A stretch of DNA of 6,583 nt from Porphyromonadaceae bacterium (GTDB lineage: Bacteria; Bacteroidota; Bacteroidia; Bacteroidales; Tannerellaceae), in the NCBI GenBank assembly GCA_003517945.1, contig DOZP01000346.1, forward strand, positions 3,925-10,507, written 5' to 3'. Both the position numbers and the translations under genes were made by a program. Of this stretch, positions 605-6,454 are shown piece by piece; position 1 is the stretch's first letter; every line of letters starts with the position of its first letter. Under the pieces are notes generated by a model that saw only the letters and a program-made list of their open reading frames with translations, ran no database searches and was not told where the DNA came from.

Positions 605-635
605 TTTTTTTTATCATAAATGATTCATATCTTTG
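605..635 (+). promoter_or_regulatory. Bacteroidota-type promoter of the metal operon
   Basis: TATCTTTG at 628-635 matches the Bacteroidota -7 consensus TAnnTTTG at every fixed position. The -33 position, 20 nt upstream, falls in a T tract (604-612) rather than a clean TTG. The predicted start of transcription is near 641-643. A 12-bp dyad, ATCAT-AA-ATGAT (613-624), sits between the two promoter boxes and could be a repressor site. Confidence 0.6.
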
Positions 636-643
636 CGCTAACA

Positions 644-1165
644 ATGAGAAATATAGCCAAACATACACTTACGGTTATAATGGCGGCTTTGGTATTTTAT
701 GGCGGAGCGGGCATTAACATTATTTCATATTGTTGCAACCAGTGCCGTTCGGCAGGAATAAAAGCGCTCTTTCAGGATAAATGTTGCGAGATTCATAATC
801 ATAATCATACCCATGCAGCGAATAAACGGGAATCCCCTGCCGGCCATTCCTGTTGTGCAAAAACCGGAGAAACAGATCAGCATTTTCGCAGCGCGCATCA
901 TGAAAAATCCTGTAATCATTGTACGGATCATACCTCCGGAAATTGTTGCAATATGGAGCGCATTGATTTCGACTGGAATACACAAAATACCACCGGATCG
1001 GACACAAACCTTTCTCCGGTTGTGGTTGATTTATTACCCTCCGGGGCCTTTGATCGTTCAATAACAGACCATTTGGTATGCGAGGCCGGCGCAATCATGT
1101 CCAACGGGCCGCCATTAGTCTGTCCCCGCGAATACCTTTCCCGCCTTACCATTCTTTTGATTTAG
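644..1165 (+). CDS. Cys/His-rich envelope protein, HYC_CC_PP-like, putative metal binding
   Basis: This 173-residue protein has a short basic N-terminus (MRNIAKH) and a hydrophobic segment at about residues 9-27, so it is probably exported or membrane-anchored. Eleven Cys and ten His lie between residues 30 and 102, in clusters such as YCCNQC, DKCCEIHNHNHTH, HSCC, CNHC and NCC, which is strong evidence of soft-metal binding. The order SYC (28-30), CC (47-48) and PP near the C-terminus (156-157, GPPLVCPREYL) fits the Bacteroidota family known as HYC_CC_PP, with Ser replacing the first His; that name is from memory. An upstream in-frame ATG at 620 gives 181 residues, but the -7 box would then lie inside the gene, so 644 is preferred. 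It leads a module with a TonB receptor and an HMA protein. Its exact role is unknown; buffering, sensing or handing over copper or zinc are possible. Confidence 0.75.
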   Translation: MRNIAKHTLTVIMAALVFYGGAGINIISYCCNQCRSAGIKALFQDKCCEIHNHNHTHAANKRESPAGHSCCAKTGETDQHFRSAHHEKSCNHCTDHTSGNCCNMERIDFDWNTQNTTGSDTNLSPVVVDLLPSGAFDRSITDHLVCEAGAIMSNGPPLVCPREYLSRLTILLI

Positions 1166-1304
1166 TTTTCGGAAGAGGGGATTTCCCTCCTGTGCAATAT
1201 ACCCGGTAAAAAGGTATATCCGTTCGTGAGATCCCGATTATCCGGACAACATTCTATCATTCCGATGTATGTTTGTAAAAAAAGATCAATCAAAAGAATA
1301 AAAA
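1166..1304 (+). promoter_or_regulatory. intergenic region with a likely promoter for the TonB receptor gene
   Basis: TATGTTTG at 1268-1275 matches the -7 consensus TAnnTTTG, but no clear TTG lies about 20 nt upstream. Transcription would start near 1282, leaving a leader of roughly 20 nt. Upstream is a 5-bp stem, GAGGG (1175-1179) with CCCTC (1185-1189), with no T run. Next comes a perfect 7-bp inverted repeat, ATATACC (1197-1203) with GGTATAT (1213-1219), which could be an operator. Read-through from the first gene is also possible. Confidence 0.45.
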
Positions 1305-3518
1305 ATGACAAAACATATATATATTATTATCACTTTACTCTTTTCTTCTTATACGATAGCAGAAGAAAAAATAAAAGGATACGTCTTTGACGAAAACAAT
1401 GAACCGATGCCGGGAGCCAATGTCCATTGGGAAAAAACAACAAAAGGTACGACTACGAATACAGACGGTTATTTTGAGCTGGATCAGGAAACTACCAATC
1501 AATTAGTTATAAGCCATATAGGATACACCACCTATACCATTGCGGTCAGACCTTCCGACGAACCGCTGCGTATTACCCTGAAAAGTGAAGTAGAACTTGA
1601 TGAAGTGGTAGTGAGCGAACGTCGTATCGGCACCATATCTTCACGTACCAGTATCCTGCAAACCCAGAAAATAACATACGATGAGCTTTCCCGTGCGGCA
1701 TGCTGCAATCTGGCGGAAAGTTTTGAAACAAACCCGTCTGTTGACGTTTCGTACGCAGACGCCGCAACCGGCGCGCGCCAGATCAAGCTTTTGGGATTAT
1801 CGGGGACATACGTACAGATGCTGACGGAAAACTACCCGAATTTCCGTGGCGCGGCTTCGCTTTACGGACTGGATTATGTTCCCGGAGCCTGGATGGAAAA
1901 TATACAGATATCCAAAGGCACTTCATCCGTAAAAAACGGATACGAAGCAATGGCCGGCCAGATCAATGTGGAATATAAGAAACCGGTTACGGCAGATATT
2001 TTCTCGGCTAATCTTTTTGCCAGCGACGCCGGCAGGTATGAAGCTAACAGTGACGCATTCTGGCATATCAACAACAACCTTTCCACCGGATTGTTCGTGC
2101 ATTATTCCAAAGATGGCATGCAACATGACGGCAATGACGACGGATTTCTGGATATGCCGCTCAAAGAACAGGTCAACCTGATGAACCGGTGGCAACACCG
2201 CATCAATAACTATGTAGCGCAATACGGCGTACGCTACTTGCACGAAAACCGTACCGGCGGTCAGGATACGAAGCATCATAATGTTACAGATCCGTACCGT
2301 ATCAAACTCCATACAAACCGCATGGAAGGATTTACCAAACAGGCCTATATCATTGATCCGGAAAAAGTTGAAAGCGTCGCATTGATCCTGTCCGGCTCTT
2401 ACCACGACCAACAAGCTACTTACGACCATACGCCTTACAACATCTATCAGAATAACATATATGCCAGCCTGATGTACGAAAAGGAATTTACGCCGATGCA
2501 TAGCCTGAGTACCGGCCTGAGCCTGAATTATGACGGCTTTGACGAAAACCTGACGCAAAACAGAGAAAAACAGGTTTACAACCGAAGCGAAGTCGTACCC
2601 GGGGCCTATGTTCAATATACCTGTAACCTGAATGATAAATTGATTATCCTGGCCGGTATACGTGCAGACCATAGTTCAATTTACGACTTTTTCGTAACCC
2701 CTCGCGTCCATCTGAAATACAACCCGTTCGATTGGTTTCACATACGCGCTTCCGCAGGAAAAGGGTTCCGTACCGCCAACGTGCTTGCCGAAAATAATTT
2801 TTTACTGTCCAGCAGCCGCAGTATAGTGATCGCGAACAATCTGGATCAGGAAGAAGCATGGAACACCGGAATTAATTTTTCTTTTTATATTCCTGTCGCA
2901 GGCAAAGATCTTATCATCAATACGGAATGGTATTACACGGATTTCAGCAAACAAGTCGTCGTAGATATGGACAGTAATCCGCACGAAGTCAGTTTCTATA
3001 ACCTTGACGGAAAGTCATATTCAAACAGTTTTCAGATAGAAGCGACATATCCGTTTCCTTTCCTGCGCGGCTTCACTTTAACGGGCGCCTACCGTTACAC
3101 GGACGCCCAAACGGATTACCGGAATGCGGAAGGTGTTGTAAAACGGTTAAAGAAACCTTTGGTAAGCAATTATAAAGGACTACTAACCGCATCTTACCAG
3201 ACACCTTTAAAAAAGTGGCAGTTCGACCTGACCGGACAATTCAACGGCGGAGGCCGTATGCCGGTTCCGGACACGAAAAATCCGATGTGGGATACCGATT
3301 TCAGTTCTTACCAGGTGTGGAACGCGCAAATAACAAAATTTTTCCGCCGGTGGTCCGTCTATGCGGGAGCGGAAAATATGTTTAATTTCACACAGGATCA
3401 TCCGGTCATTGACGCGGTAAACCCACGGGGAGACAATTTTGACGGTTCCATGGTATGGGGTCCCGTACACGGACGAAAAATATACGCAGGCCTGCGCTTT
3501 AACATAGGCCGTGATTAA
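1305..3518 (+). CDS. TonB-dependent outer-membrane receptor, putative copper/heavy-metal uptake
   Basis: This 737-residue gated outer-membrane channel would use TonB-ExbBD energy to import its substrate. In order there is a signal peptide (about 1-19, cut near TIA/EE), a CarboxypepD_reg-like domain (about 23-93, with GYVFDENNEPMPGANV and TDGYFEL), an ELDEVVV segment (97-103), a plug (about 110-226, ending AMAGQINVEYKKP), and a beta-barrel to the C-terminus with many alternating aromatic strands. The plug begins with AACCNLAESFETNPSVDVSY, a Cys-Cys pair at 133-134 that I recall from Bacteroidota receptors encoded beside HMA-domain genes. The last residues (LRFNIGRD) leave the usual terminal aromatic several positions inside. 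The HMA gene begins 32 nt downstream, so the two are probably one transcript. Copper is an inference from the neighbours; zinc or another metal complex cannot be excluded. Confidence 0.9.
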   Translation: MTKHIYIIITLLFSSYTIAEEKIKGYVFDENNEPMPGANVHWEKTTKGTTTNTDGYFELDQETTNQLVISHIGYTTYTIAVRPSDEPLRITLKSEVELDEVVVSERRIGTISSRTSILQTQKITYDELSRAACCNLAESFETNPSVDVSYADAATGARQIKLLGLSGTYVQMLTENYPNFRGAASLYGLDYVPGAWMENIQISKGTSSVKNGYEAMAGQINVEYKKPVTADIFSANLFASDAGRYEANSDAFWHINNNLSTGLFVHYSKDGMQHDGNDDGFLDMPLKEQVNLMNRWQHRINNYVAQYGVRYLHENRTGGQDTKHHNVTDPYRIKLHTNRMEGFTKQAYIIDPEKVESVALILSGSYHDQQATYDHTPYNIYQNNIYASLMYEKEFTPMHSLSTGLSLNYDGFDENLTQNREKQVYNRSEVVPGAYVQYTCNLNDKLIILAGIRADHSSIYDFFVTPRVHLKYNPFDWFHIRASAGKGFRTANVLAENNFLLSSSRSIVIANNLDQEEAWNTGINFSFYIPVAGKDLIINTEWYYTDFSKQVVVDMDSNPHEVSFYNLDGKSYSNSFQIEATYPFPFLRGFTLTGAYRYTDAQTDYRNAEGVVKRLKKPLVSNYKGLLTASYQTPLKKWQFDLTGQFNGGGRMPVPDTKNPMWDTDFSSYQVWNAQITKFFRRWSVYAGAENMFNFTQDHPVIDAVNPRGDNFDGSMVWGPVHGRKIYAGLRFNIGRD

Positions 3519-3550
3519 TATCAACTATTAACTTTTTAAATATCAACATT

Positions 3551-3883
3551 ATGAAACAGATTTTAGTTATTATGTTTTGTGCGATATGCGCCATTTCATC
3601 AGCATCCGCACAGGAGACAAAGAAAAAAAGTAAAAAAGAAACAACAACGTTTCTTATTGAAAACATGAAATGCGAAAACTGCATAAAAAAGATTGAAAAA
3701 AACATCGCCTTCGAAAAAGGCGTAACCGATCTAACCTGCGATTTGTCTACGCTTACCGCTACAGTTACTTACCGCACGGATAAAACCGACGAAAAAAAAC
3801 TGATCACCGCATTCGAAAAGATAGATATGAAAGCAAAAGCGCTGAAAAAAGAAGAAAAACCGGAGGTCAAACACAACGACTAA
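3551..3883 (+). CDS. periplasmic heavy-metal-associated (HMA) domain protein
   Basis: This 110-residue protein has a Sec signal peptide (about 1-20, ending SASA before QET) and so should act in the periplasm. After a short Lys-rich linker comes an HMA fold of about 70 residues with the metal motif MKCENC (39-44), the MxCxxC site that binds Cu(I) or similar soft metals in CopZ- and MerP-like proteins. The expected beta-alpha-beta pattern follows: the helix IKKIEKNIAF, a strand around LTATVTY, and a second helix, KKLITAFEKI. The tail is rich in Lys and Glu. It lies 32 nt after the TonB receptor gene and just before a strong hairpin, so it is probably the last gene of that transcript. A likely role is catching metal after outer-membrane entry and passing it on. 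The specific metal is not shown by the sequence. Confidence 0.88.
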   Translation: MKQILVIMFCAICAISSASAQETKKKSKKETTTFLIENMKCENCIKKIEKNIAFEKGVTDLTCDLSTLTATVTYRTDKTDEKKLITAFEKIDMKAKALKKEEKPEVKHND

Positions 3884-3907
3884 AAACATTGAAAACCAAC
3901 ATTTAAT

Positions 3908-3950
3908 CAGCAAACGGGGTTGCTTCACATGAAAGCGACCCCGTTTGCTG
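3908..3950. terminator. strong hairpin closing the metal operon
   Basis: An 18-bp stem with a single G-U pair joins 3908-3925 to 3933-3950 around a 7-nt loop (CACATGA). It begins 25 nt after the HMA stop codon. Neither flank carries a long T run (AAAACATG follows on the + strand), so it may be an atypical terminator or a 3'-end stabilising structure shared with minus-strand transcription. A weaker stem with a 2-nt bulge follows, 3960-3971 with 3976-3985. Confidence 0.6.
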
Positions 3951-4275
3951 AAAACATGCTGACCGGGTTTTGAAGAAAACCGTCAAAGTCAGGAAAATCT
4001 ATGAAATAGAATTACCCACACCTTGCATATTGGCCAGTCGCAACACCATTACGATATTCTCTTACAATCATATTATCCTTTAAACTTGCAGGTATCATCA
4101 TACGCAACCAGTAATTTGTAATTGCAGGTATGATAACCAACCGTCGCATTGCGCTATCAGCAAATCAATATAATACTTTGTTTTCTCGGCAAGCGTCCGA
4201 ATTTCTTTTCGGCTGTTATTCTTTGCATCCATAAACGTTATGATTTACGGCTGTAAAGGTCGGTATACAACAAAT
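3951..4275. other. intergenic stretch without a convincing full-length gene
   Basis: No + strand gene is visible here. What can be seen is a bulged hairpin (3960-3985), two overlapping short minus-strand reading frames (4098-4232 and 4012-4149), and a direct repeat TTGCAGGTAT at 4086-4095 and 4122-4131, 36 nt apart and lying across those frames. No tRNA, riboswitch or insertion-sequence signature was recognised. Confidence 0.5.
4098..4232 (-). CDS. possible small protein, 44 residues, divergent from the lipoprotein gene
   Basis: From the ATG at 4232 the minus strand encodes 44 residues (MDAKNNSRKEIRTLAEK, then KYYIDLLIAQCDGWLSYL and a short tail) ending in TGA at 4098-4100. The composition is protein-like: a charged amphipathic helix followed by a hydrophobic stretch. 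No family is recognised. Its start lies about 22 nt after a -7-like octamer placed 20 nt from the TTG of the inverted palindromic repeat copy, which is the main argument for expression. A second minus-strand frame, 45 residues from an ATG at 4149 to a TAA ending at 4012 (MRRLVIIPAITNYWLRMM at its start), overlaps its 3' half. Together they could be one decayed gene broken by a frameshift around 4100-4150. Chance occurrence is a real alternative. Confidence 0.3.
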   Translation of the reverse strand: MDAKNNSRKEIRTLAEKTKYYIDLLIAQCDGWLSYLQLQITGCV

Positions 4276-4284
4276 GCTTGTCAA
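4254..4284 (-). promoter_or_regulatory. possible divergent promoter from the inverted repeat copy
   Basis: On the minus strand the TTG of the repeat (4284-4282) is followed, after exactly 20 nt, by GACCTTTA (4261-4254), which keeps only four of the six fixed positions of TAnnTTTG. Spacing equals that of the two + strand promoters, but the -7 box is weak. It would serve the small reading frame starting at 4232. Confidence 0.25.
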
Positions 4285-4342
4285 TGAGTAAAATTACTCA
4301 ATTTCAGCGTGTCTTTATGAGTAATTTTACTCATTGACAAGC
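4276..4342. repeat. 25-bp perfect inverted repeat (copies 1 and 2 of the palindromic element)
   Basis: Bases 4276-4300 are the exact reverse complement of 4318-4342, separated by 17 nt. Each arm itself contains a dyad, TGAGTAA-N2-TTACTCA (4285-4300 and 4318-4333), next to TTGACA pointing outward. The pair is therefore two operator-like palindromes in head-to-head, divergent arrangement. Within the spacer, ATTTCAG (4301-4307) is complementary to CTGAAAT (4343-4349) just outside the right arm. Copy 1 extends as a 27-bp match, inverted, to the third copy at 5688-5714; copy 2 matches that third copy over 22 bp in direct orientation. Confidence 0.95.
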
Positions 4343-4364
4343 CTGAAATGCCGCCGTATCTTTG
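4334..4364 (+). promoter_or_regulatory. promoter of the fusion lipoprotein gene
   Basis: TTG at 4334-4336, the tail of palindrome copy 2, is followed after 20 nt by TATCTTTG at 4357-4364, a full match to the Bacteroidota -7 consensus. Transcription would begin near 4371, giving a leader of about 64 nt. The palindrome (4318-4333) would be centred near -45 and abuts the -33 box, a position suited to a dimeric activator or a repressor. Confidence 0.7.
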
Positions 4365-4434
4365 CACCGGATTTCAGCATGAACGGGATTTTCGGGGCTG
4401 ATTTCCGGAAAAGCATTTATATAAATAATTGAAT

Positions 4435-5712
4435 ATGAAAAAAATAGGGATTATTTCGCTTTTAATGCTGTTTCTTGCAGGTTGCAGGGATACAGGGCCG
4501 GAGATGATTTCTGTCAAAGGCGGCACGTTTCTGATGGGCTGTACGGACGATGAGGAAAGCAATTACTTCGCCGGCTGGGAAAAGCCGGTACATGAAGTGA
4601 CGTTAAGCGGTTATAAGATAGGCAAGTTCCTGATAACGCAGGCGCAATGGCGGAAGGTAATGGGAGCTACTCCAAATGTTCCTGCCGGTTGCGACGATTG
4701 CCCGATCACAAACGTCAGTTGGGATGACATCACAGGTCTCACAGGCAATTATCCGCAACCTGCCGTTGTGCAATTCACAACCATTGAGGCGGAAGACTTT
4801 GTGAAACATCCGAAAGGAACAGAGGAAGATCACGGGTTTAAATATAAGGTACGCTTCACCGTTCCCGAGCGATATGCCGACAAAGCCGTTTTAAAAACTT
4901 TGCAACAGAGGTTTGTAACCACCCTGCAATCGTGGTACTTCCAAAATCCGGACGACGAACCGATGGAGGATTACAGTTCACTACCGCCTGAAAAAGCGGT
5001 CAAAGCCATTGCCGATTCATGGAAAGCCAAATACAACGAAGAGATCAGGAAGGAAGCGGATGACCCGAAACCCGATTGGACTACCTTTTGGGAGTTCAAC
5101 TACAGCAATACTATTCCCTTTGTCAACGAAACGCTGTTGCAGTTGCAAACGGAGACATACCAGTTTTTGGGCGGCGCTCATGGCACCAGATGGTTTTCGT
5201 GTCATCTTTTCAATCTTCAAACAGGCGAAACATACACTCGAGACGATATTTTCAAACCCGAAGCCGCCGCCCGTATCCACCGGTTACTGCTCAATTATTG
5301 GGAAGTGGAATCACTTCGCGAAGTTGGGTTTATAGAAGACAATATATGGACGGAAAATACAGCATTTGCCGTCATGCCCAGAGGTATCACATACTTATAC
5401 AGCGATTACGAACTCGGCAGTTACGCCCTCGGATGCACCAAAGTAACCATCCCCTACGACATAATCCTGCCTTACCTGCGCGAAGGAACGCCCGTATGGG
5501 AGGTTGCAAAATCCTATGTCACAGATGATTCCGAAACCCTCCATGCCCCCGCCCCTGCTACTGTCCCTGAAACAACGCCAATGGACAACGATCAATTCCT
5601 CCTGTTGATGGATAAAATCTATTACAATCTGCCCGCATCCGTCATGCCCGTGCTCGAAACACTCAAAATGAACAAAGGATGGAATCCGAAATTGAGTAAT
5701 TTTACTCATTGA
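4435..5712 (+). CDS. lipoprotein: truncated FGE-like N-terminus fused to a DUF3298/RsiV-like domain
   Basis: This 425-residue protein starts MKKIGIISLLMLFLAGC, a signal peptide with lipobox LAGC, so Cys17 should be lipidated and the rest exposed to the envelope. Residues about 24-98 resemble the start of the formylglycine-generating enzyme/sulfatase-modifying-factor fold (MISVKGGTFLMG, EKPVHEVTLSGYKIGKFLIT, CDDCPITNVSWDD) but stop before the part holding the active-site cysteines, so no FGE catalysis is expected. Residues about 110-360 look like a DUF4163/DUF3298 protein as in RsiV: GGAHG (246-250), FNLQTGETYTRDDIF, and a YSDYELGSYALG...IPYDIILPYL block. A Pro/Thr-rich linker and short helical tail follow. 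The last codons (LSNFTH and stop) lie inside palindrome copy 3. An in-frame TTG at 4429 is less likely than the ATG at 4435. The function of the fusion is unknown; envelope binding is a guess. Confidence 0.8.
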   Translation: MKKIGIISLLMLFLAGCRDTGPEMISVKGGTFLMGCTDDEESNYFAGWEKPVHEVTLSGYKIGKFLITQAQWRKVMGATPNVPAGCDDCPITNVSWDDITGLTGNYPQPAVVQFTTIEAEDFVKHPKGTEEDHGFKYKVRFTVPERYADKAVLKTLQQRFVTTLQSWYFQNPDDEPMEDYSSLPPEKAVKAIADSWKAKYNEEIRKEADDPKPDWTTFWEFNYSNTIPFVNETLLQLQTETYQFLGGAHGTRWFSCHLFNLQTGETYTRDDIFKPEAAARIHRLLLNYWEVESLREVGFIEDNIWTENTAFAVMPRGITYLYSDYELGSYALGCTKVTIPYDIILPYLREGTPVWEVAKSYVTDDSETLHAPAPATVPETTPMDNDQFLLLMDKIYYNLPASVMPVLETLKMNKGWNPKLSNFTH

Positions 5713-5714
5713 CA
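5688..5714 (+). repeat. third copy of the palindromic element, overlapping a stop codon
   Basis: These 27 bases are the exact reverse complement of 4279-4305, and 5693-5714 equals 4318-4339 in direct orientation. The core dyad TGAGTAA-TT-TTACTCA is at 5693-5708. The copy supplies the last eight sense codons and the TGA stop (5710-5712) of the upstream lipoprotein gene, and its TTG is placed as the -33 box of the next gene. Confidence 0.95.
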
Positions 5715-5739
5715 CGCGCTTCTATCCGATGTATTTTTA
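5709..5739 (+). promoter_or_regulatory. probable promoter of the gene at 5771
   Basis: TTG at 5709-5711 inside palindrome copy 3 is followed after 20 nt by TATTTTTA (5732-5739), which fits TAnnTTTG except for the last base. The geometry is the same as at copy 2. Transcription would begin near 5746, about 25 nt before the ATG at 5771, which favours that start over the in-frame ATG at 5753. Confidence 0.5.
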
Positions 5740-5770
5740 TCCCTGAAATCAGATGACAATTTTTATCGTA

Positions 5771-6454
5771 ATGAAAAAGAAAAGTATTTTTAAAATTTTG
5801 GCGGCGGCGGTGCTGTTTAGCTGTGCGTTATTCGCTGTCATGGAGCAAGATAAAGAAACTGCGGTTTTGACCGTTGCCCCGGCTGTTGTACTCGGCGCGT
5901 CGGTTTTCTGTCAGGGGAGAAAGCCGGTCAACGACCAATTGACGGGGCTGACCATGAGTTGCGGCCACATGTCCCGTTATGCTTCGTATTCGTTCGAGTT
6001 ATGGGAGAAGGACGGCGAAACCGTCTTTTCCTGCCATTTCCATGACAATAAAGAGATAGAAAAAGAGATTAAAATGGAGAATGTCAGCGTGTCGCCCGAC
6101 TACATGCGCCGGTTGCGCGAAATCGCAAAGAAATACAACTTTGCGCGTATGAAGGCAAAAAACAGGTTCTACAAACCCTTTATACGTGATGCGCCATCGT
6201 ATCACACAGCCCTTTACTGGCCGGACAAAACTCGTATACCCCTCAATTTCCGGCCGGGAAACGGCGAAGTGGAAAAACTATTCCGCGAGATAGCGGATCT
6301 ATACGTGAATCCGTCAGACAGCGACTCATCGGAGGTTATTTTACCCTCCCGCGAACAGCAGCAACCTGCTCATGCGCCTGAGCTACCGTCTGAACCGGTT
6401 TTTAACTGCACACATGGGAAGGACGGCTATCCGGCGGACGGCGATGGGTATTGA
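5771..6454 (+). CDS. uncharacterised membrane-anchored or exported protein
   Basis: No family is recognised. From the ATG at 5771 the protein has 227 residues: a basic start (MKKKSIFK), a hydrophobic segment at about 9-23 containing LFSC (15-18, a poor lipobox because of Phe), a short charged stretch (EQDKET), then a second hydrophobic segment at about 31-46. It may thus be a two-helix membrane anchor, or a cleaved signal followed by an apolar stretch. The soluble part (about 50-190) looks like a compact alpha/beta domain, with YSFELWEKDGETVFSCHF, then a helix SPDYMRRLREIAKKYNF, then PLNFRPGNGEVEKLFREIADLY. The tail after 190 is low in order, rich in Ser, Pro and Gln, and ends in a Gly/Asp-rich stretch. 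An ATG at 5753 adds six residues but leaves a very short leader after the predicted promoter. It likely shares regulation with the lipoprotein gene upstream through the palindrome. Confidence 0.7.
   Translation: MKKKSIFKILAAAVLFSCALFAVMEQDKETAVLTVAPAVVLGASVFCQGRKPVNDQLTGLTMSCGHMSRYASYSFELWEKDGETVFSCHFHDNKEIEKEIKMENVSVSPDYMRRLREIAKKYNFARMKAKNRFYKPFIRDAPSYHTALYWPDKTRIPLNFRPGNGEVEKLFREIADLYVNPSDSDSSEVILPSREQQQPAHAPELPSEPVFNCTHGKDGYPADGDGY

What the first reader, a model, noticed from the sequence alone, without database searches (positions are those of the whole stretch)
4276..5739. A thrice-repeated palindromic operator-promoter cassette with fixed 20-nt geometry
The element TGAGTAA-N2-TTACTCA followed by TTGACA occurs three times. 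In each case the TTG is exactly 20 nt before an octamer resembling the Bacteroidota -7 box: TATCTTTG (4357), TATTTTTA (5732) and, on the minus strand, GACCTTTA (4261-4254). Shared spacing in unrelated flanking sequence suggests selected function: a dimeric regulator bound next to the -33 box, controlling the gene at 4435, the gene at 5771 and possibly a divergent small gene. I do not know a described Bacteroidota regulator with this site.
Basis: partly seen in the sequence, partly recalled or inferred. Interest (0 to 1): 0.75.

Follow-up and report, generated by a model that had tools for sequence, protein, structure and literature searches.

The report
Paired operators of a FimR-like regulon
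A DNA palindrome occurs three times here, each time exactly 20 letters before a promoter box or a weaker likeness of one, and relatives carry the same or a respelled palindrome beside a regulator gene whose protein likely binds it, so it is probably the switch for a set of likely cell-envelope genes and a tiny, undescribed protein.

Summary
The palindrome occurs seven times in the window's own genome, on three contigs, six of them as pairs 33 nt apart. In the genus, 10 of 10 palindrome ends flush with TTG have the -7 box at exactly 20 nt; no other offset does. Across 123 family genomes operator and regulator co-occur (Fisher p = 7.6e-9), and 6 of 29 operator-promoters lie within 1 kb of the regulator gene (0.05 expected). 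The operator is a 7-2-7 inverted repeat, as for NarL. Paralogous regulators go with respelled operators (TGAGTAA, TACGTAA, TAGTTAA, TRGGTAA) in the same place; one recognition-helix residue (Asn, Thr, Ser) follows three of the four spellings, with exceptions. Where a second palindrome exists it lies 23-24 or 33-34 nt upstream. An undescribed small protein lies behind such operators in 10 of 10 copies seen; the window has a truncated copy at 4098-4232 (-). Weak points: the regulator gene is missing from the 81%-complete own assembly; five regulator-bearing genomes show no operator; no wet-lab data.

The parts
4276..4342 (.). composite operator: perfect 25-nt inverted repeat (4276-4300 / 4318-4342), each arm holding one palindrome; palindrome starts 33 nt apart
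   Evidence: same 33-nt pair in G000 C145 and C153
4285..4300 (.). palindrome 1, TGAGTAAAATTACTCA; promoter-proximal for the minus-strand small gene, distal for the 4435 gene
4318..4333 (.). palindrome 2, TGAGTAATTTTACTCA; promoter-proximal for the 4435 gene
5693..5708 (.). palindrome 3, TGAGTAATTTTACTCA; single copy, overlaps the 3' end of the 4435 gene
4334..4336 (+). TTG of the -33 region, promoter A
4357..4364 (+). TATCTTTG, -7 box, promoter A
5709..5711 (+). TTG of the -33 region, promoter B; overlaps the stop codon 5710-5712 of the upstream gene
5732..5739 (+). TATTTTTA, -7-like box (5 of 6), promoter B
4282..4284 (-). TTG of the -33 region, promoter C
4254..4261 (-). GACCTTTA, weak -7-like box (4 of 6), promoter C
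4435..5712 (+). predicted target: 425-aa lipoprotein-like protein (LAGC near the N-terminus), FGE-sulfatase-like plus DUF3298 domains
   Evidence: FGE-sulfatase 40.7 bits, DUF3298 38 bits; PdaC 26.1, below its cut-off; N-terminus read from the sequence; start
5771..6454 (+). predicted target: 227-aa protein (233 aa if started at 5753), N-terminal hydrophobic stretch, no Pfam or NCBIfam family
4098..4232 (-). predicted target: 44-aa small ORF, truncated copy of a conserved small protein (keeps LAEKT..Y..LLI.QC..WLS, lacks EEEG..NVEKR)

Best explanation
The three palindromes are predicted to be operators for dimers of a FimR-like, NarL-family response regulator that would sit flush against the -33 box, probably as an activator, and so likely control the genes at 4435 and 5771 and the small minus-strand gene at 4098-4232. 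Shown here: the operator-promoter geometry, the pairing, the co-occurrence with and adjacency to the regulator gene in relatives, and the respelling of the operator beside paralogous regulators. Inferred: a FimS-like kinase with TPR repeats phosphorylates the regulator; a dimer fills one 7-2-7 palindrome; two dimers on the same DNA face (second site one helical turn nearer or farther) cooperate; the proximal dimer touches the housekeeping sigma factor at about -45, near where NarL sites lie at napF and yeaR. Between 4285 and 4333 one pair of operators would serve two divergent promoters, and the single copy at 5693 a third. Activation rather than repression is a guess from position. The regulator is expected to autoregulate, since operators sit before its own operon or its kinase in several genomes (G017, G456, G026, G014, G018, G036; kinase only in G000).
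For: (1) Geometry: of 25 oriented palindrome ends examined in the genus 10 are flush with TTG; all 10 have the -7 box at 20 nt, mean 5.6 of 6 letters, next best offset 2.6. In a scan of named genomes that did not use the -7 box, 9 of 25 stretches that I labelled Bacteroidota from titles have a box at TTG+20 and 4 at TTG+19; of the other 36 one has a box, at an unrelated distance. (2) Co-occurrence in 123 family genomes: regulator in 17, operator-promoter in 12 (reversed control: 1 site), both in 10, p = 7.6e-9; genus only, regulator in 10, operator in 7, both in 6 of 41, p = 2.9e-4. (3) Adjacency: 6 of 29 operator-promoters (G477 dropped as asymmetric) within 1 kb of a regulator gene, 0.047 expected by uniform placement. 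(4) In the own genome the one clearly FimS-like kinase (261 bits; next gene of 29 rows 90.8) is the gene behind the C145 operator. (5) Respelled operators beside or on the same contig as paralogous regulators. (6) Recognition helix: Asn in 7 regulators with TGAGTAA sites beside them (G456, G503, G017a; G245 with one mismatch; G014a and G026a as 7-1-7; L071 with the site at its 3' side), Thr in 4 tied to TACGTAA (one adjacent, two on the same contig, one only in the same genome), Ser in both G018 regulators beside TAGTTAA. (7) Homologous targets sit under different spellings: G017 C7 gene 1 (TGAGTAA) and G036 C8 gene 1 (TACGTAA), 482 bits; G017 C7 gene 2 and G064 C88 gene 1, 145 bits. (8) 7-2-7 inverted heptamers are NarL's preferred site and lie at -40 to -49 (napF) and -38 to -47 (yeaR) (PMC4549865, passages).
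Against: No full-length regulator of this clade in the own assembly: best of 38 scored candidates 82.8 bits at 31% identity, none (24 of 50 candidates scored); the assembly is 81.1% complete and contig C153 ends 24 nt after its operator pair, so absence is not proven. Of 17 regulator-bearing genomes 5 (G031, G020, G435, G475, G329) show no operator in these searches; G504's operator is far from its regulator. The residue rule fails or is untested for G020 (Asn), G031 and G475 (Thr), for the more distant G014b-d and G026b, and for G013 (Asn, but TRGGTAA). Related genomes are not independent, so the p values are optimistic. The same palindrome occurs in unrelated settings (tandem arrays in many phyla, a cyanobacterial repeat), so it alone is not diagnostic. 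The two large window genes have no homologue among the other target sets. No expression or binding data.
Confidence: 0.83

Rival explanations
1. The palindrome is bound by another dimeric regulator (TetR-, MarR- or XRE-like) and merely travels in the same genomes as the FimSR-like genes.
For: Other regulators do seem to use palindromes flush with -33 here: G487 C207 has TACCTAA-N2-TTAGGTA before a TetR gene. The same 16-mer occurs in unrelated settings in other phyla. The own assembly lacks the regulator.
Against: 6 of 29 sites within 1 kb of the regulator gene against 0.047 expected; the spelling changes with the paralogous regulator and, in three of four spellings, with its recognition helix; I saw no other regulator gene recurring beside the sites, reading gene starts by eye.
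Confidence: 0.1
2. The operator pair is a repressor site: the regulator (phosphorylated or not) blocks RNA polymerase at the -33 region.
For: The palindrome abuts the -33 TTG; NarL itself represses frdA from a 7-2-7 site near the start (PMC4549865, passages).
Against: The palindrome ends before TTG and its centre lies near -45, close to the NarL sites of napF and yeaR; FimR, the nearest studied system, is described as an activator (PMC1974823 and PMC5706477, passages).
Confidence: 0.25
3. The repeats are remnants of a mobile repeat or recombination site that happens to carry a promoter.
For: Two identical 25-nt arms in inverted order plus a third copy resemble transposon or recombination ends.
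Against: Outside the palindromes, TTGAC and the -7 box the flanks look unrelated between most loci (C145 and the window share the start of the small gene); spacing is 23-24 or 33-34 nt in 25 of 25 rows with a second site, which are 23 physical pairs; respelled operators keep the same architecture.
Confidence: 0.02

Closest known systems
FimS/FimR two-component system of Porphyromonas gingivalis
   Same: Kinase with TPR repeats and NarL-type regulator; NF053520 (FimS) is the best NCBIfam match of the four kinases scanned (P0002, P0004, P0005 and the G245 kinase).
   Different: 140-312 bits against a curated cut-off of 600, so not FimS by NCBI's rule; I recognised no fimbrial target, but no fimbrial search was made; the passages I read give no FimR site sequence, so the operators could not be compared.
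NarL 7-2-7 operator of Escherichia coli
   Same: Two inverted heptamers separated by 2 bp, placed at about -40 to -49 at napF and yeaR (PMC4549865, passages).
   Different: Heptamer sequence: the engineered narG site TACCCCTAAAGGGGTA against TGAGTAA-N2-TTACTCA; here most sites come in pairs 23-24 or 33-34 nt apart, and G014 and G026 also use a 7-1-7 form.
sigma-ABfr housekeeping promoter of Bacteroidota
   Same: -7 box TAnnTTTG and a TTG-bearing -33 element (PMC7366714, passages).
   Different: Here the -33 element is flush with an operator and the spacing to the -7 box is 20 nt (21 at some TACGTAA sites).

Membership tests
NarL/FixJ-type response regulator (for the regulator predicted to bind) | receiver domain plus C-terminal LuxR-type HTH | tested here: met
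   P0001: Response_reg 80 bits, GerE 63.2 bits; best solved relatives VraR/LiaR, DevR, NarL, RcsB, EvgA
NarL/FixJ-type response regulator (for the regulator predicted to bind) | full-length member of the clade present in the window's own genome | tested here: not met
   none in the 81.1%-complete assembly; only a receiver-only relative on C153
NarL 7-2-7 operator | inverted heptamers with a 2-bp centre | tested here: met
   20 of 22 sites found with unconstrained NNN/NNN are perfect dyads, the other two have one mismatch; two of the 22 perfect ones (G487) do not belong to this family
NarL 7-2-7 operator | bound by a NarL-type dimer | not testable with these tools
   needs a binding assay or footprint
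FimS/FimR system | kinase passes the curated NCBIfam FimS cut-off (600 bits) | tested here: not met
   310.7 (P0002), 311.8 (P0005), 139.5 (P0004, cut by the contig end), 286.8 (G245 kinase)
FimS/FimR system | regulator and TPR kinase encoded side by side | tested here: met
   G017 C7, G456 C5, G503 C14, G245 C2, L071; not for G000, where only the kinase is seen
FimS/FimR system | controls fimbriae | not tested
   no fimbrial model search was made on the targets
sigma-ABfr promoter | TAnnTTTG at -7 with a -33 element | tested here: met
   10 of 10 TTG-flush ends in the genus at 20 nt; transcription starts not mapped

The most novel reading that the evidence does not exclude
A rewritable operator code: in Tannerella and Parabacteroides a duplicated FimSR-like system respells its whole regulon (TGAGTAA, TACGTAA, TAGTTAA, TRGGTAA) around an unchanged promoter frame, largely through one recognition-helix position (Asn, Thr, Ser), and carries along a dedicated helical small protein, the split-off N-terminal module of one of its kinases, that is a built-in partner of the pathway.
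Probability: 0.4. Interest if true: 0.78.

Novelty: new variant of a known kind. Interest (0 to 1): 0.62.

Why it matters
It would give a sequence-level operator for a FimR-like regulator. I found none in print in the searches (10 of 95 papers listed; 12 of 22 listed); subscription journals are mostly not held. It offers a natural series of three to four paired regulators and operators for asking how NarL-type specificity changes. It predicts which genes an unstudied Bacteroidota two-component family controls, and it uncovers a conserved small protein for which Pfam and NCBIfam have no model.

Tried and rejected
Mobile element or recombination site: rejected, flanks mostly unrelated and spacing constrained. 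RNA structure: no Rfam match at gathering score in the window. A pattern-only census of the palindrome across phyla was split by eye into three classes; tandem arrays (in L025 before an AAA/DUF4143 gene) and a cyanobacterial repeat were set aside as different things. G487 sites (TATCTAA, TACCTAA) looked like further spellings but one lies before a TetR gene and the other is a tandem array without a FimSR-like neighbour. G477 was dropped as asymmetric. A search for palindromes in the loci of G020, G031 and G475 gave nothing convincing. Literature searches for the operator letters or for a FimR consensus found nothing relevant (one search returned one paper, on a Haemophilus locus, holding a 12-letter piece). 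The regulator tree is poorly resolved (12 of 22 inner branches open), so the number of independent spelling changes is not known. Exact-pattern counts miss degenerate sites, so absences are lower bounds. NarL contact residues could not be found in the papers held (no paper).

Full report
WHAT IS THERE. The palindrome TGAGTAA-N2-TTACTCA is in the window three times (4285-4300, 4318-4333, 5693-5708). Copies 1 and 2 lie in the arms of a perfect 25-nt inverted repeat with a 33-nt period. TTG is flush with each copy on the outward side and a TAnnTTTG-like octamer starts exactly 20 nt later (6, 5 and 4 of 6 letters). The third copy overlaps the end of the preceding gene, whose stop codon lies in the -33 region.

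THE OWN GENOME. The window is C304:3925-10507 of a 366-contig, 81.1%-complete assembly. Allowing one mismatch there are 7 places, all exact: pairs with the same 33-nt spacing on C145 and C153, the pair and the single copy in the window, and 0 for the reversed pattern. The genus is likely Tannerella: contigs of two same-genus genomes (G014, G026) have the same lengths as named Tannerella contigs. On C145 the pair lies between a TPR histidine kinase and genes for an SPFH-type (Band_7_1 28.3 bits) and a zinc-ribbon-like protein (below cut-off); on C153 before a leucine-rich-repeat protein gene.

GEOMETRY TEST. In 41 genus genomes the exact palindrome occurs in 5. Of 25 oriented ends with enough flank, 10 are flush with TTG and all 10 have the -7 box at 20 nt (mean 5.6 of 6; best other offset 2.6). 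Two of the ten (G014 C36, G026 C36) are orthologous. In a scan of named genomes with TGAGTAA-N2-TTACTCATTG, 61 stretches were found; I labelled 25 as Bacteroidota from titles. Nine of these have a box at 20 nt and four at 19 nt; of the other 36, one has a box at an unrelated distance. The nine overlap the G-handle genomes, and two of the four belong to the tandem-array class.

THE REGULATOR. The kinases' best NCBIfam match is FimS, at 140-312 bits against a cut-off of 600 (four kinases scanned). In 123 family genomes the regulator (alignment A1, E <= 1e-35) is in 17 and GTAA-N2-TTAC-N2-ATTG-N19..21-TAnnTTTG in 12 (24 sites; 1 for the reversed control). Ten have both; the exceptions are the own genome and G477 (asymmetric, probably chance). 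Fisher p = 7.6e-9, within the genus 2.9e-4; genomes are related, so these are optimistic. Outside the family the pattern is rare: 6 of 393 order genomes, three of them family members already counted. Adding the 7-1-7 form (6 sites, only in G014 and G026, control 0) and dropping G477, 6 of 29 sites are within 1 kb of a regulator gene, 0.047 expected. In the own genome the regulator is missing, but its one clearly FimS-like kinase is the gene behind the C145 operator.

A RESPELLED OPERATOR. Paralogous regulators go with other spellings of the same frame: TACGTAA-N2-TTACGTA (G017 C79, G064, G003, G036), TAGTTAA-N2-TTAACTA (G018) and TRGGTAA (G013). A search leaving three letters of each half free found 22 sites in 13 of 123 genomes, 0 for the control, 20 of 22 perfect dyads; two (G487) do not belong to this family. 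The recognition helix reads T[VI]-x-N-HK in the seven regulators beside TGAGTAA, TV-x-T-HK in the four tied to TACGTAA, TV-N-S-HK in both G018 regulators and TVYNHR in G013. In the PDB comparison this position aligns with the V before H in NarL's TVKVH; that this NarL residue contacts bases is recalled, not from a call. In the model it lies in helix 183-196. Of 120 homologues listed, 118 fit the pattern [TS][VILM]xxH[KR]; the position is N 77, T 23, S 9, A 6, others 3. Exceptions: G020 (Asn), G031 and G475 (Thr) have no matching operator found, nor have the distant G014b-d and G026b, and G013 has Asn with another spelling. Homologous targets are found under different spellings.

PAIRING. Of 29 promoter-proximal sites listed, 25 have a second palindrome (up to 3 mismatches) upstream, best match at 23 nt (3), 24 (6), 33 (6) or 34 (10). 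Two divergent pairs (C145, window) are counted from both sides, so these are 23 physical pairs. The two modes differ by about one helical turn. The four singles are window 5693, G014 C219, L071 and L086.

THE SMALL PROTEIN. A profile of seven copies (the window's included) finds ten copies in the fetched loci longer than 3,500 nt (plus two shorter ones searched); three (G245, G503, G018b) were not in the profile. All ten have an operator starting 67-151 nt before the ATG. The loci had been fetched because of operators or regulators, so this is not an unbiased count. Three copies are the N-terminus of a longer frame (two kinases, one DUF3108-like protein); the stand-alone ones have 57-65 aa, the window's 44. 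A protein search found 21 relatives of 55-113 aa, the query's own record included, without Pfam domain; four share contig lengths (20180, 6042, 9855, 10840) with regulators (120 of 538 listed), compared by eye. The core LA.KTKRYCDLLIEQSDNWLSEEEG..NVEK is almost constant and is predicted helical at modest confidence (pLDDT 72). The window copy stops after WLS plus ten unrelated residues, so it is probably degenerate.

HOW IT LIKELY WORKS. A TPR kinase senses an unknown, perhaps peptide, signal (for FimS a suggestion of PMC11053733, passages) and phosphorylates the regulator. Dimers fill the two palindromes on one face, and the proximal dimer at about -45 helps the polymerase. NarL 7-2-7 sites lie at -40 to -49 and -38 to -47 at napF and yeaR (PMC4549865, passages). 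FimR is described as an activator and binds the mfa1 promoter, without a change on phosphorylation in that assay (PMC1974823, passages). Targets, by family matches and by N-termini as I read them (no signal-peptide program was run), are often lipoprotein, secreted or membrane proteins (LRR, TMEM43, LemA, SPFH, 5'-nucleotidase) and the kinases themselves, which suggests an envelope or surface response; this is inference.

VERDICT. The regulator is now predicted with good support, the site is part of a diversified operator family, and a small protein belongs to it. It is a new variant of a known kind (NarL-type regulon), not a new principle.

Noticed in passing
L025 6778, L026 7494, L065, L078, L079, L081, L082, L094, L105: A different use of nearly the same palindrome: tandem arrays (TACTCAATA..TTGAGTAA-N2-TTACTCA..TTGAGTAA) in several phyla; in L025 just before an AAA_14/DUF4143 gene. 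Possibly autoregulation by an unrelated protein; genes at the other loci were not typed.
   Followed up: partly
L061, L069, L085, L091, L097, L110, L112, L114, L115: Cyanobacterial (Microcoleus, Oscillatoriales) repeat holding TGAGTAA-N2-TTACTCATTG and a shared tail, several copies per genome.
   Followed up: no
L009 9572-9973 (-), G000 C153: Receiver-only relative of the regulator in the operon behind a TGAGTAA promoter; where relatives read LLD it reads IVG, so the phosphorylatable Asp seems lost, and there is no HTH. Possibly a decoy or a decayed regulator.
   Followed up: partly
window 620-3883: His/Cys-rich ORF (620-1165), TonB-dependent receptor (1305-3518) and HMA-domain protein (3551-3883) in a row: looks like a metal-uptake operon without the operator.
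   Followed up: no
window 3897-3961: 29-nt inverted repeat (83%, 7-nt loop) just after the HMA gene, probably its terminator.
   Followed up: no
L241 1155 (G487 C207); L240 about 5040-5130 (G487 C85): Other palindromes flush with TTG-20-box: TACCTAA-N2-TTAGGTA before a TetR gene, and a tandem TATCTAA array; suggests that palindromes flush with -33 may be a wider layout in this family.
   Followed up: partly
L165 and L163 (G014 C58, G026 C79): Behind the operator beside the regulator: the small protein, then (typed in L165) a TMEM43 protein (250 bits), a 63-aa ORF and a LemA protein (126 bits).
   Followed up: partly
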